Shown here piece by piece: positions 49,491 through 55,500 of a stretch of 64,000 nt of DNA. The position numbers and the translations under genes are program-made. The stretch lies in NCBI RefSeq assembly GCF_003426815.1, contig NZ_QKYK01000025.1, positions 1 to 64,000 of the forward strand, given 5' to 3'. Position 1 is the first letter of the stretch; every line of letters begins with the position of its first letter. Below the pieces are notes generated by a model, which did no database searches, was not told the origin of the DNA, and saw only the letters and a list, made by a program, of their open reading frames with translations. Source of the stretch: Desertimonas flava (lineage in GTDB: Bacteria > Actinomycetota > Acidimicrobiia > Acidimicrobiales > Ilumatobacteraceae).

Positions 49491-51842
49491 TCAACCCATC
49501 GAGCGGGGGGCGGCGTTGTCGAACCGGGCGTACTGGCCGCGGAACACGAGCCGCATGTCCCCGATCGGACCGGCTCGATGCTTGGCGACGATGAGGTCGG
49601 CGGCGCCCCGGTCGGGCGACTCCTTGTTGTAGACCTCGTCGCGGTAGAGGAACATGACGACGTCTGCGTCCTGCTCGAGGCTGTTGTGGGCGACGACGCC
49701 GTTGGCGACGAAGTTGTGCGTCGCCAGCACCGTGGCGTCGAACACCTCCTGGATCCCCACGTCGTCGATGCCGACGATGCGGTCCCACACGACGTCGGAG
49801 GTCGCCAGGTCGGCGAGCTCCTTGTCGCCGAGGACGTCGGCGAGCTCGGCGAGGCGGCCCCGGCTCGACTCGCCTCGCCGGCCGTCGGCAGAGCCGGGGA
49901 CGGTGTCGTTCTCGTCGTCGCTTCCGGCGTCGGGGATCGGCGCGCCGCCGCCCACTACATCGGCGACGAACCGGCGGTGGCCGTCGAGACCGCGGACTCG
50001 CAACGTCACGTGGCCGGCGTCCGAGACGTGAATCGTCGAGCGGACGGCGAGCCGGAGGAGCAACTGCTGCAGGTGGTCGGCCACGACGGCGCCGGAGCAC
50101 TCGAGGGAGATACGCACGCCGGGCTCGACGACGGCGCAACCGGCGCGGCGGGCGAGGTCCCAGCGACGTCGCAAGTACTGGGCCACCTGGGCCGTCGGCA
50201 GGGCGAAGACCTCGGCCCCGACGCCGTCGGCCGCGGCATGCCGCGCGAGGTCACCCGGGCTCATCGGCGTGACGTGCTCGGGAGCACCGAGGAGGCGGGG
50301 CACGGCGAGGCGCGCTCCGACGTGCAGCTCGTCGAGTGACGCCCAGCCGTCGACGGTGCGGAAGCGGTGATTGCCGGTGGCGTCGACGGTGCGACCCGAC
50401 GCCATGCGGAGCCGGAACACGCGCTTGACCCCACTCGGGAACGCGTGGGTGAGCGTGGCCGGCACCATCCGGTAGTGATCGTCGAGCGACCAGACCGGTA
50501 CGTCGAGGGCGCCCGTGTCGACGAGCTCGCCGAGCGTGATCTCGGTGTTGGTGTCGGCGCGCAGCAGCCGCGTCGACGCCGTGAGGCAACCCGACTCACG
50601 GAGGTCGGACAGCATCGGCTTCTTGTCGGCGCGGGCCTCGAGGTTTCGCGACAGCTGGCTGAGGGCGACGATCGGCACCTCGAGCTCGCGGGCGAGGATC
50701 TTGAGGTTTCGGGAGATCTCCGACACCTCGAGCTGGCGGTTCTCGGCGTTGCCGCCGCCGCTCATCAGCTGGAGGTAGTCGATGAGGATCAGGCCGAGGT
50801 CGCCCTTCTGCATCTTCAGCCGGCGGGCCTTGGCGCGGATCTCCATGACGGTGACGCGCGGGTTGTCGTCGAGGTAGAGCGGCACCTCGAGCCGGCCGAT
50901 CGCTCGTCCGATGCGGGCCCAGTCGCTCTCCGACAGCTTGCCGTTGCGGATCTTGGTCGAGTCGACCTCGGCCTCGCTCGACAGGATTCGCTGGGTGAGC
51001 TCGATGTGGCCCATCTCGAGCGAGAACACGAGCACGGCCTTGCCCGACACCTTGGCCACGTTGGTCGCCATCCCGAGGCCGAACGCCGTCTTGCCCATGG
51101 CTGGACGGGCCCCGATGATGTTCAGCGTCGACGGTTGGAGGCCGGACAGCAGCTCATCGAGATCCTGGTAGCCGGTGGGGATGCCCGTGATGGTGTCGCC
51201 GCGGGCGTAGTTCTCCTCGATGCGCTCGATGGCGCCCTTCATCAGCTCACCGATCTCGGCGTAGGTGTCCGACACCCGCCGGTCGGCGACCTTGAACACC
51301 TTCGTCTCGGCCTCGTCGAGCGCCTGGTCGACGTTGTCGGGTCCGCTGTAGGCGATCTCGCTGATCTCGCCGGCGACCATGATGAGACGGCGCAGCATCG
51401 CCGCGTCGGCGACGATCTTGGCGTAGTGGCCGGCGTTGGAGATGGCCGGCGTGGCGTTCTGCAGATGGTGCAGCGTCTCGACGCCACCGACCGCTTCGAG
51501 CAGGCCGAGGCGCTGCAGCTCGTCGGCGACGGTGATGGTGTCGGCGGGGCCACCCGACTGCGACACCGACACGGCGACGTCGTAGATGTGCTGGTGGGCC
51601 GGCTTGTAGAAGTCGTCGTAGCGCAGGCCGGCCTCGATGACCGCGCCGAGCGCCTCGCGCGACAGCAGGAGCGCGCCGAGGACGGCCTCCTCGGCCGGGA
51701 GGTTGTGCGGCGGGACCCGCGACCCGTCGGTGCTGCCCCTGCCGCCGTTGCGTCCACCTTGCCGGCCGCCGTTGCGACCGTCTCGCGGCTGCGCCGGACG
51801 GGTGGTCGACAGCGAAGCGAGGAACGGGTCGTCGTCACTCAC
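49491..51842 (-). CDS. dnaB: Replicative DNA helicase DnaB with an intein
   Basis: Replicative helicase of 783 aa before splicing, 481 after. N-extein (1-418): helicase N-domain (LPAEEAVLGALLLSREAL) and RecA domain with GARPAMGKT and the DnaB signature LGLILIDYLQLM. The chain is split at LSDLRESG / SLEQDADVVMF by an intein of 302 aa (419-720). C-extein: 63 aa, with IVAKHRAGPIGDMRL. GTG start. An Arg/Gly-rich N-terminal extension of about 40 residues precedes the helicase domain. Confidence 0.95.
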   Translation of the reverse strand: MSDDDPFLASLSTTRPAQPRDGRNGGRQGGRNGGRGSTDGSRVPPHNLPAEEAVLGALLLSREALGAVIEAGLRYDDFYKPAHQHIYDVAVSVSQSGGPADTITVADELQRLGLLEAVGGVETLHHLQNATPAISNAGHYAKIVADAAMLRRLIMVAGEISEIAYSGPDNVDQALDEAETKVFKVADRRVSDTYAEIGELMKGAIERIEENYARGDTITGIPTGYQDLDELLSGLQPSTLNIIGARPAMGKTAFGLGMATNVAKVSGKAVLVFSLEMGHIELTQRILSSEAEVDSTKIRNGKLSESDWARIGRAIGRLEVPLYLDDNPRVTVMEIRAKARRLKMQKGDLGLILIDYLQLMSGGGNAENRQLEVSEISRNLKILARELEVPIVALSQLSRNLEARADKKPMLSDLRESGCLTASTRLLRADTNTEITLGELVDTGALDVPVWSLDDHYRMVPATLTHAFPSGVKRVFRLRMASGRTVDATGNHRFRTVDGWASLDELHVGARLAVPRLLGAPEHVTPMSPGDLARHAAADGVGAEVFALPTAQVAQYLRRRWDLARRAGCAVVEPGVRISLECSGAVVADHLQQLLLRLAVRSTIHVSDAGHVTLRVRGLDGHRRFVADVVGGGAPIPDAGSDDENDTVPGSADGRRGESSRGRLAELADVLGDKELADLATSDVVWDRIVGIDDVGIQEVFDATVLATHNFVANGVVAHNSLEQDADVVMFLYRDEVYNKESPDRGAADLIVAKHRAGPIGDMRLVFRGQYARFDNAAPRSMG
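49683..50588 (-). other. DnaB intein (302 aa), endonuclease degenerate
   Basis: Block A starts with CLTASTRLL; the block B region is ATGNHRFRT; the C-end reads FVANGVVAHN followed by Ser (+1), so splicing should work through Cys1, Asn302 and Ser+1. The central part keeps a shadow of the second half of a LAGLIDADG homing endonuclease (ISLECSGAVVADHLQQLLLR), but no LAGLIDADG acidic motif remains. Insertion at the same LRESG/S site is known in other actinobacterial DnaB proteins. Confidence 0.9.
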
Positions 51843-53844: not shown

Positions 53845-54049
53845 GGTGCGCTGGAACCTCCCTCCGGACCCGGGACCGGCACGAGTGACGGGCTCCCCGG
53901 GGCCCCACCGGGATGATGGGGCAGGGTGAATATGACCCGGCGAGTGTATCGGGCGATCTCGGCCATGGTCCCCAGTGTGAACCAGGGGTGTCACACTCAT
54001 AATGACTCGCGTGCTTGGCGATGCCTCCGATCTGACCCACCGTGTCACC
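53845..54049. other. Upstream region of rpsF
   Basis: No gene is seen. It must hold the rpsF promoter (minus strand), but no clear -35/-10 pair stands out; CATATT and CATTAT are the most A/T-rich hexamers. A short inverted repeat GTGTGA / TCACAC (near 53975-53997) lies inside. Confidence 0.4.
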
Positions 54050-54227
54050 GGCGCTTGCTGCCTTGACTCTGATCTGTCGGTCGGGTGTCTTCGTCAAGCA
54101 CGCGCACCGACCGGTCGGGCGGACGTGACCTGATAGGAGCCTCGCAGCGGCGTCCTGAGTGTGCTGTCCGCCGTCCCGGCCGGTGGTGCCAACATCCCCA
54201 GCTTCTTGAAGGGAAGGCTCCACCAGC
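54050..54227 (+). ncRNA. Candidate IS110 bridge RNA region (left end)
   Basis: IS110 elements of the IS621 type encode a bridge RNA in the noncoding end before the recombinase gene. This 178-nt gap fits by position and size. It holds GATAGGAGC (54132-54140), which recurs exactly just past the recombinase gene (55456-55464), as expected for a guide that pairs with the element's own end. Inverted repeats such as CGACCGGTCG fit a structured RNA. Exact ends are unknown. Confidence 0.45.
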
Positions 54228-55451
54228 ATGCATCATCAACGCCTCGTTGTCACCGGCGGTGTCGACACGCACGGCGATGTCCACGTCGCTGCTGTGCTCG
54301 ACCCGGTCGGCCGAGTGCTCGCGACTGGGTCGTTCCCAGCGACCACGGCCGGGTATCGGCAGTTGTTGTCGTGGCTGTGCCGACACGGCCGAGTGGTCCA
54401 AGTCGGTGTCGAAGGCACCGGCTCGTACGGGGCAGGCCTGGCCCGCCACCTCGCTCGTCACGGCGTGGCCGTGGTTGAAGTCAACCGTCCCGACCGGCAA
54501 GCCCGTCGGCGCCGCGGCAAGTCTGACACCGTCGACGCGATCGCCGCCGCGCGGGCCGCGTTGAGCGGCGATGCCACCGCAACACCCAAGACCGGCGACG
54601 GGATCGTGGAGACGATTCGGTCGTTGCAGGTCGCTCGTCGCTCCGCGGTGAAGGCCCGGACCCAGGCCGGCAACCAGATCCGCGATCTCATCGTGACCGC
54701 CCCCGACGATCTGCGAGCCCAGCTCAAAGGCCTCAACACCGTGAACCGGGTCGCTGCGTGCGCACGGTTCCGACCCGGCGACTACACCGACCCGACCGAA
54801 GGGCTTCGTCACGCCCTGCGTCACCTCGCCCGACGGTGGCAAGCCCTCGACGTCGAGATCACCGAGCTCGACGGCGCTCTCAAGATGCTCACCGCGCGAG
54901 CGAACCCGGCCCTCGTCGCCGCACGCGGCGTCGGCCACGAAGTCGCCGCCGCGTTGCTGGTCACCGCCGGCGACAACCCGCAACGGATGCAGACCGAAGC
55001 CAGCTTCGCCGCGCTCTGCGGCGTCTCTCCGATCGAAGCGTCATCGGGCAAGACGATCCGTCACCGCCTCAACCGCGGCGGTGACCGCCGCGCCAACAAC
55101 GCCCTGTGGCGCATCATCATGGTCCGCCTCCAACACGACGAACGCACCAAGGCCTACGTCGAGCGTCGCACCGCCGAGGGCCTGAGCATCCGCGAGATCA
55201 TCCGCTGCCTCAAACGAGCCGTCGCCCGCGAGATGTTCCGCCTCCTCACGAACCCGCCCGCCGTGCCCAACGGCGCTGACCTACGCACCGCCCGCAACAC
55301 CGCCGGGATCTCGCTCGCCGTCGTCGCCGAGCAGCTCGGCACCTGGCCCACCCGCATCTCCCAGCTCGAGCGCGGCCTCCAACATGACCTCGACCTCGCC
55401 ACCCGCTACCAAACCTGGCTCAACACCAAGATCCCCGCAATCGCCGCTTGA
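54228..55451 (+). CDS. IS110-family recombinase (DEDD transposase) with HTH tail
   Basis: Recombinase of 407 aa. N-terminal RuvC-like DEDD domain: Asp13 (GGVDTHGD), Glu62 (VEGTGSYG), Asp100 and Asp103 (KSDTVDAIAAARA). C-terminal transposase domain with the catalytic Ser of EASSGKTIRHRLNRGGDRR (272-273). Beyond the normal end lies an Xre-like HTH of about 50 residues (RTARNTAGISLAVVAEQLG, then RISQLERGL). The protein appears intact. Confidence 0.93.
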   Translation: MHHQRLVVTGGVDTHGDVHVAAVLDPVGRVLATGSFPATTAGYRQLLSWLCRHGRVVQVGVEGTGSYGAGLARHLARHGVAVVEVNRPDRQARRRRGKSDTVDAIAAARAALSGDATATPKTGDGIVETIRSLQVARRSAVKARTQAGNQIRDLIVTAPDDLRAQLKGLNTVNRVAACARFRPGDYTDPTEGLRHALRHLARRWQALDVEITELDGALKMLTARANPALVAARGVGHEVAAALLVTAGDNPQRMQTEASFAALCGVSPIEASSGKTIRHRLNRGGDRRANNALWRIIMVRLQHDERTKAYVERRTAEGLSIREIIRCLKRAVAREMFRLLTNPPAVPNGADLRTARNTAGISLAVVAEQLGTWPTRISQLERGLQHDLDLATRYQTWLNTKIPAIAA

Positions 55452-55500
55452 CAACGATAGGAGCATCAGTCACGGTGAGATCACGAGCCGCCGGAGACGG

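What the first reader, a model, noticed from the sequence alone, without database searches (positions are those of the whole stretch)
54050..55470. IS110 element with a candidate bridge RNA and an HTH-tailed recombinase
The sequence GATAGGAGC occurs once in the left noncoding end and once past the recombinase gene. With mismatch, the match extends to 12 of 13 positions (TGATAGGAGCCTC/CGATAGGAGCATC). This is what a donor guide in a bridge RNA would produce. An Xre-like tail on the recombinase could control its own expression. The TTGACA at the right end could form a junction promoter.
Basis: partly seen in the sequence, partly recalled or inferred. Interest (0 to 1): 0.55.

Follow-up and report, generated by a model that had tools for sequence, protein, structure and literature searches.

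The report
RNA-guided jumping gene, cross-coded core
This is a 1.47-kb bacterial jumping gene whose own small RNA carries address labels for its ends and its landing site; comparison with relatives suggests that the labels also encode a one-letter difference between element and target, which may help drive the insertion forward.

Summary
The window holds an IS110-type insertion sequence. An empty site in one relative and guide matches place it at 53995-55467 (1473 bp), not 54050-55470. The repeated GATAGGAGC is real: the left copy is the left donor guide of a bridge RNA, the right copy the left donor site. A covariance model built without the window finds the RNA at 54019-54190 (138.9 bits, E 6e-21). 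Across 34 elements all four guides fit their own element better than permuted ones (0 of 20,000). In the circle TTGACA and CATAAT would lie 17 nt apart. The Xre-like tail is real and occurs in 19 of 59 proteins; its function is untested.

What departs from IS621: target and donor core differ at the first base (23 of 24 elements), and the RNA encodes the difference crosswise: right guides code the partner's base, left guides their own. This extends the known handshake pairing into the core. In passing: in some relatives the RNA lies downstream of the gene, or on both sides. RNA expression and mobility are untested.

The parts
53995..55467 (+). IS110-type element, 1473 bp (the shared C allows 53994-55466 as well)
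   Evidence: Empty site in L047 (GGGGTCTCACAGTCAC against joined flanks GGGGTGTCAC|AGTCACGG); loss of rpsF-upstream homology at about 53995-53999 in the longest alignments; guide matches
53986..53994 (+). left target flank GGGTGTCAC with target core AC at 53993-53994
   Evidence: 7 contiguous matches to the LTG
53995..54001 (+). right donor (start of the element), ACTCATA
   Evidence: RDG codes ACTCAGG
53998..54003 (+). CATAAT, -10 half of the circle-junction promoter
   Evidence: spacer of 17 to TTGACA in the circle
54019..54190 (+). bridge RNA (covariance-model hit; true 5' end probably about 54010, inferred)
   Evidence: 138.9 bits; fold z = -4.15 for 54004-54195; 14 of 21 consensus pairs with changes on both sides
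54040..54048 (+). left target guide CCGTGTCAC
54064..54074 (+). right target guide TGACTCTGATC; codes donor positions 7-9 (ATC) and then the right target
   Evidence: in-register match to the right target only 3 of 7
54132..54140 (+). left donor guide GATAGGAGC (first copy of the reported repeat)
54154..54164 (+). right donor guide CCTGAGTGTGC; codes target positions 7-9 (CAC) and then the right donor
54228..55451 (+). IS110 recombinase, 407 aa (D13, E62, D100, D103 and S273 conserved)
55272..55385 (+). Xre-type helix-turn-helix tail (residues 349-386)
55448..55453 (+). TTGACA, -35 half of the junction promoter; overlaps the stop codon
55456..55464 (+). left donor GATAGGAGC (second copy of the reported repeat)
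55465..55467 (+). donor position 7 (A) and donor core TC
55468..55474 (+). right target flank AGTCACG

Best explanation
An IS110-type element. The recombinase excises it as a circle in which the right end (TTGACA) and the left end (CATAAT) join into a promoter; this transcribes the left end as a bridge RNA and then the recombinase. The RNA's first loop pairs with the target (..GTGTCAC|AG..), the second with the element's own junction (GATAGGAGC ATC|ACTCA..). Top strands are cut after position 9, the shared C. The first core base differs, A in the target and T in the donor. Right guides are written to pair with the incoming partner strand at positions 7-8, left guides with their own DNA at position 8, so both loops gain pairs when strands exchange, which should push insertion forward. 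Shown by sequence: the ends, guides, promoter halves, tail and cross-coding across relatives. Inferred from IS621: circle, cut site, RNP and reaction order. The tail's role is unknown; extra DNA binding or self-control of the junction promoter are guesses.
For: Families and fold. Independent covariance-model hit. Guide permutations, 34 elements (30 or 29 with right ends): LT 7.38 of 9 own against 5.68 other, RD 4.74 of 7 against 3.20, LD 7.90 of 9 against 7.02, RT 4.31 of 7 against 1.78, each 0 of 20,000. Empty site. Cross-coding without any filter on the core: target core AC 29, GC 4, CC 1 of 34; donor core TC 35 of 36; position 8 differs in 23 of 24; RTG codes the donor base in 23 and the target base in 0, RDG the target base in 20 and the donor base in 0 of 24. 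With right ends limited to TC, n = 23: LTG=target 23, LDG=donor 23, RTG=donor 23, RDG=target 20 plus 3 G-U. At position 7 RTG/donor 31 of 35 (19.9 expected) and RDG/target 32 of 34 (17.4 expected), 0 of 20,000 each. Promoter.
Against: The window's own RTG fits its right target in only 3 of 7 positions in register. A single copy exists in the genome, so current mobility is not shown. The empty site is seen in 1 of the 6 relatives read. Relatives share descent, so the counts are not independent events; donor position 8 hardly varies, so T8 is conserved rather than covarying. 16 of 50 left ends and 14 of 50 right ends did not pass the mapping cut, some for want of sequence. In one search the own guide was the sole best fit in only 12 of 34 (LT), 2 of 34 (RD), 2 of 30 (LD) and 11 of 29 (RT), since relatives share guides. 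No expression or assay data.
Confidence: 0.9

Rival explanations
1. Ordinary IS110 in every respect: the T/A difference at core position 8 has no function. The crossover is simply one base long (or blunt after C9), and guides and flanks keep conserved bases by descent.
For: Donor T8 hardly varies (35 of 36), and relatives are related by descent; a one-base overlap also explains why no left end carries T8 (0 of 39 mapped copies).
Against: Right guides code the partner's base and never their own at position 8 (0 of 24 each), and they follow changes at position 7. In one search the 7 elements with target core CC that fit at 14 or more of 16 at the left end all have an RDG that codes CC.
Confidence: 0.35
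2. Decayed element: the ORF is intact but the insertion is old, and the RNA guides are relics that no longer drive movement.
For: Single copy; RT guide fits 3 of 7; the nearest relative in the genomes searched is about 65% identical in protein.
Against: Open 407-aa frame with catalytic residues; promoter halves at the right spacing; 9 of 9 left donor match; 8 contiguous RDG matches.
Confidence: 0.2
3. The repeated 9-mer is chance or a simple terminal repeat bound by protein, not a guide.
For: A 9-mer pair alone is weak evidence.
Against: 0 of 100 shuffles; same pair in relatives with joint changes and at fixed places in a conserved fold.
Confidence: 0.02

Closest known systems
IS621 and its bridge RNA (Durrant 2024 PMC11208160: passages and section 6 read; Hiraizumi 2024 PMC11208158: passages and sections 8 and 11 read)
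   Same: DEDD/Tnp recombinase fold, left-end RNA with target and donor loops, junction promoter across RE-LE, guide/strand scheme, cut after core position 9, handshake pairing at position 7
   Different: IS621 has CT at both ends; here the target core is NC (mostly AC) and the donor core TC, and cross-coding reaches position 8. The solved IS621 chain has 328 residues and its match ends before the tail region.
ISEc21 and the IS110/IS1111 seekRNA work (Siddiquee 2024 PMC11187229: passages and section 6 read)
   Same: Upstream noncoding RNA, no target duplication, circle with a junction promoter; some window relatives have IS3-like flanks, and ISEc21 is reported to target IS3 genes
   Different: The section read speaks of length variation in the middle region, not of a C-terminal HTH; no unequal core was found in the passages read
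Tailed-length actinobacterial IS110 relatives on Rhodococcus, Arthrobacter, Paenarthrobacter, Streptomyces and Mycolicibacterium plasmids (30 of 1390 records listed)
   Same: tblastn match reaching residues 398-407, so same length class
   Different: 49-61% identical in the listed rows of that length; their tails and RNAs were not examined further

Membership tests
IS110 family (IS110 group) | DEDD RuvC-like domain plus Transposase_20 with catalytic serine | tested here: met
   (NF033542 above cut-off)
IS110 family (IS110 group) | long left noncoding end with a two-loop bridge RNA, short right end | tested here: met
   233 nt left, 16 nt after the stop
IS110 family (IS110 group) | guides match own target and donor | tested here: met
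   window RTG weak (3 of 7)
IS110 family (IS110 group) | promoter formed at the circle junction | tested here: met
   sequence anatomy only; activity not testable
IS110 family (IS110 group) | circle formation and transposition | not testable with these tools
   needs an experiment
IS621-type | same core dinucleotide (CT) at both ends | tested here: not met
   AC at the left, TC at the right
IS1111 group | RNA downstream of the gene | tested here: not met
   window RNA is upstream only
IS1111 group | subterminal inverted repeats of 7-17 bp | not tested
   no search made
Xre/HTH_3 superfamily (tail) | HTH_31/HTH_3 profile and four-helix HTH fold | tested here: met
   HTH_31 in 18 of 18 tails, HTH_3 in 15 of 18; model pLDDT 89.2; 25 PDB profile hits at E <= 0.01. 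Against: Foldseek has none at E <= 0.001, best 0.11; in the full protein HTH_31 is below its cut-off

The most novel reading that the evidence does not exclude
In this actinobacterial IS110 clade the core is deliberately unequal (target N-C, donor T-C) and the bridge RNA is written for the product: right guides pair with the partner's top strand at positions 7 and 8, left guides with their own DNA at position 8. Strand exchange then gains base pairs in both loops and acts as a built-in forward ratchet, with a crossover overlap of at most one base. Surveys that look for a repeated core at the two ends would tend to miss such elements. The Xre tail may be an added layer of control.
Probability: 0.45. 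Interest if true: 0.65.

Novelty: new variant of a known kind. Interest (0 to 1): 0.5.

Why it matters
Bridge recombinases are being developed as genome editors. A natural clade whose RNA encodes an unequal core gives a direct, testable rule for driving strand exchange forward and for limiting reversal, and bears on how long the strand-exchange overlap really is, which IS621 with equal cores cannot reveal. The tailed members offer an RNA-guided recombinase fused to a repressor-like DNA-binding domain.

Tried and rejected
Rfam gathering scan of 50-60 kb: no family. Phage records: no relative at E 1e-20. First guess for the left core (TC at 53991-53992) was dropped after the LTG match and the empty site put the boundary after AC. 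For the four-copy element of G364 I first read a CT core from repeat-like flanks; LTG and RDG moved it to CC|T. Motif anchoring of guides misplaced several; alignment columns were used instead. In one search several left ends were misplaced (for example L100, L101, L039); one search mapped them with both guides and set a cut. L011's right end was mismapped (GG); restrict right ends to TC, so the donor T8 in those two is by selection; the unfiltered counts are those. I looked for no operator of the HTH tail: too little power. Tail origin: 4 changes of the label on the tree, but starred branches force only 1, so one origin is not excluded. The tail profile was built from 18 of the 19 tails that it finds. 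Tail dN is below dS in 21 of 27 close pairs and above it in 6; tail dN exceeds trunk dN in 26 of 27, so constraint on the tail is weak. Papers: no statement of an unequal core was found (3 papers listed, one off topic) or in the parts read; no HTH tail in IS110 recombinases was found (search listings) or 75 (passages); the library lacks most subscription papers.

Full report
WHAT IS THERE. The 407-aa frame 54228-55451 is an IS110-family RNA-guided recombinase: Pfam DEDD_Tnp_IS110 (6e-25) and Transposase_20 (4e-17), NCBIfam NF033542 above its cut-off. Its profile finds the solved IS621 and ISCro4 recombinases; the AlphaFold model (43 sequences, pLDDT 91.4) matches them best by fold (E 4e-13). 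D13, D100, D103 and S273 are invariant and E62 is at least 90% conserved in 43 aligned sequences, window included. The element is single-copy in its 6.2-Mb genome; two further IS110 relatives (51% and 29% identical) lie on other contigs.

ENDS. The region upstream of rpsF is conserved in relatives, and the homology stops at 53995-53999 in the longest alignments. Of six relatives whose sequence I read there, one (L047) carries GGGGTCTCACAGTCAC, the joined flanks GGGGTGTCAC|AGTCACGG with one change in 16: an empty site; the other five diverge. The element is thus 53995-55467. The C is shared, so 53994-55466 is equally possible. The stated start 54050 misses 55 nt of the left end.

THE REPEAT AND THE RNA. 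GATAGGAGC occurs only at 54132 and 55456; the longer comparison matches 11 of 13, not 12. In most relatives read the right copy sits in a constant setting, TTGAC..ATAGGAGC.TC, at or soon after the stop, and the left copy in GTGACCT.ATAGGAGCC in the left end. The alignment of 38 left ends (window included) folds into two hairpins with 14 of 21 consensus pairs showing changes on both sides; the window's own RNA folds with z = -4.15. A covariance model from 27 relatives without the window finds 54019-54190 at 138.9 bits (E 6e-21; next best in the window 15.6 bits).

GUIDES. From alignment columns I read four guides per element. In 34 elements (window included) the own guide fits the own flank better than permuted guides for all four: LT 7.38 of 9 against 5.68, RD 4.74 of 7 against 3.20, LD 7.90 of 9 against 7.02 (n = 30), RT 4.31 of 7 against 1.78 (n = 29); 0 of 20,000 permutations each, and also after dropping six near-copies. 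Relatives share guides, so the own guide was the sole best in only 12, 2, 2 and 11 elements. For the window: LD 9 of 9; LTG/LT 7 contiguous (GTGTCAC); RDG/left end 8 contiguous (CACACTCA); RT only 3 of 7 in register, though positions 7-9 (ATC) and the next two bases agree.

UNEQUAL CORE. I mapped ends again using positions 1-7 and 10-16 at the left end and the 9 donor bases plus 7 right-target bases at the right end, not the core. Of 62 aligned left ends, 57 gave four guides and 50 remained after removing redundant copies; 34 left and 36 right ends passed the cut, 24 both. Target core: AC 29, GC 4, CC 1. Donor core: TC 35 of 36; the exception is a mismapped right end (L011). Position 8 differs in 23 of 24, position 9 (C) agrees in 23 of 24; RTG codes the donor base at position 8 in 23 and the target base in 0 of 24, RDG the target base in 20 and the donor base in 0. 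With right ends limited to TC (n = 23): LTG codes the target base 23, LDG the donor base 23, RTG the donor base 23, RDG the target base 20 plus 3 G-U; at position 7 RTG=donor 21 and RDG=target 21, but LDG=donor 0. Position 7 covaries (31 of 35 against 19.9 expected; 32 of 34 against 17.4; 0 of 20,000). In IS621 the published core is CT on both sides, the top strand is cut after position 9, right guides pair with the incoming core, and handshake guides act at positions 6-7 (PMC11208158, passages and sections 8 and 11). The same logic here predicts that the left end keeps the target core and the right end the donor core, as seen. What is added is that position 8 itself is unequal and cross-coded. 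No left end carries the donor's T8 (0 of 39 mapped copies, redundant ones included), which suggests that the exchanged overlap does not include position 8; this is inference. Durrant et al. identified cores as repeated sequences near the element ends; such a search would tend to pass over these elements (inference).

PROMOTER. In the circle the window reads TTGACA-N17-CATAAT. Of 31 mapped elements (window included; right ends limited to TC) 20 have TTGACA exactly, 8 differ in one base and 3 match only 3 of 6; 24 of 31 have the A and T of a -10 box at the same place in the left end. A promoter formed at the RE-LE junction is known for IS621.

TAIL. An Xre-type HTH follows the Tnp domain. 19 of 59 proteins (window included) have it, 40 do not; lengths are 400-416 against 331-362 aa. 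HTH_31 hits 18 of 18 tails; the model shows four HTH helices after the last Tnp helix, with SinR, ClgR and C-proteins as nearest but weak structural hits (best E 0.11). It changes faster than the trunk in 26 of 27 close pairs. Its function is open; the section of the seekRNA paper that I read attributes length differences to the middle variable region.

ALSO SEEN. In 15 of 77 elements the same RNA lies downstream of the gene and in 6 on both sides (the weaker second hits of L029 and L190 have E 0.21 and 0.058, that of L110 0.013). Downstream RNAs fit their own ends (n = 21, 0 of 20,000). In the six with both, the upstream copy keeps a target loop but has no recognisable donor guides. L185's downstream loop matches its site 9 of 9 while its upstream loop codes another site. 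On the tree the starred branches force at least two changes of side. Two long noncoding regions were already reported for 26 elements listed in ISfinder.

VERDICT. The element is a member of the IS110 group with two less usual features, the unequal cross-coded core and the Xre tail. Expression, mobility and the tail's role remain untested.

Noticed in passing
L110, L150, L152, L185, L029, L190 (both sides); L007-L009, L014, L112, L128, L131, L134, L135, L142, L148, L149, L163, L184, L194 (downstream): The same bridge RNA lies downstream of the recombinase gene in 15 and on both sides in 6 of 77 elements; the upstream copy then keeps a target loop or a guide-less donor-loop stem. Starred branches force at least two switches on the tree.
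   Followed up: partly
L185 (G634:C92): Two target loops that code different sites: the downstream loop fits the current target 9 of 9, the upstream one codes the GAACCGGC site of its relatives.
   Followed up: partly
L030/L101, L034, L039, L107: A subgroup that appears to insert in an IS3-type transposase gene at the codons YDN (TACGAC|AACGCG), read by eye from flanks only; ISEc21 is reported to target IS3 genes as well.
   Followed up: no
window 49491-51842, - strand: DnaB helicase with an intein: Pfam Intein_splicing 3e-19 inside DnaB_C.
   Followed up: partly
G000 contig 1, 220232-221527 (L107): Second IS110 relative in the same genome with its own bridge RNA (102.4 bits); the match reported for it carries an in-frame TGA.
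   Followed up: partly
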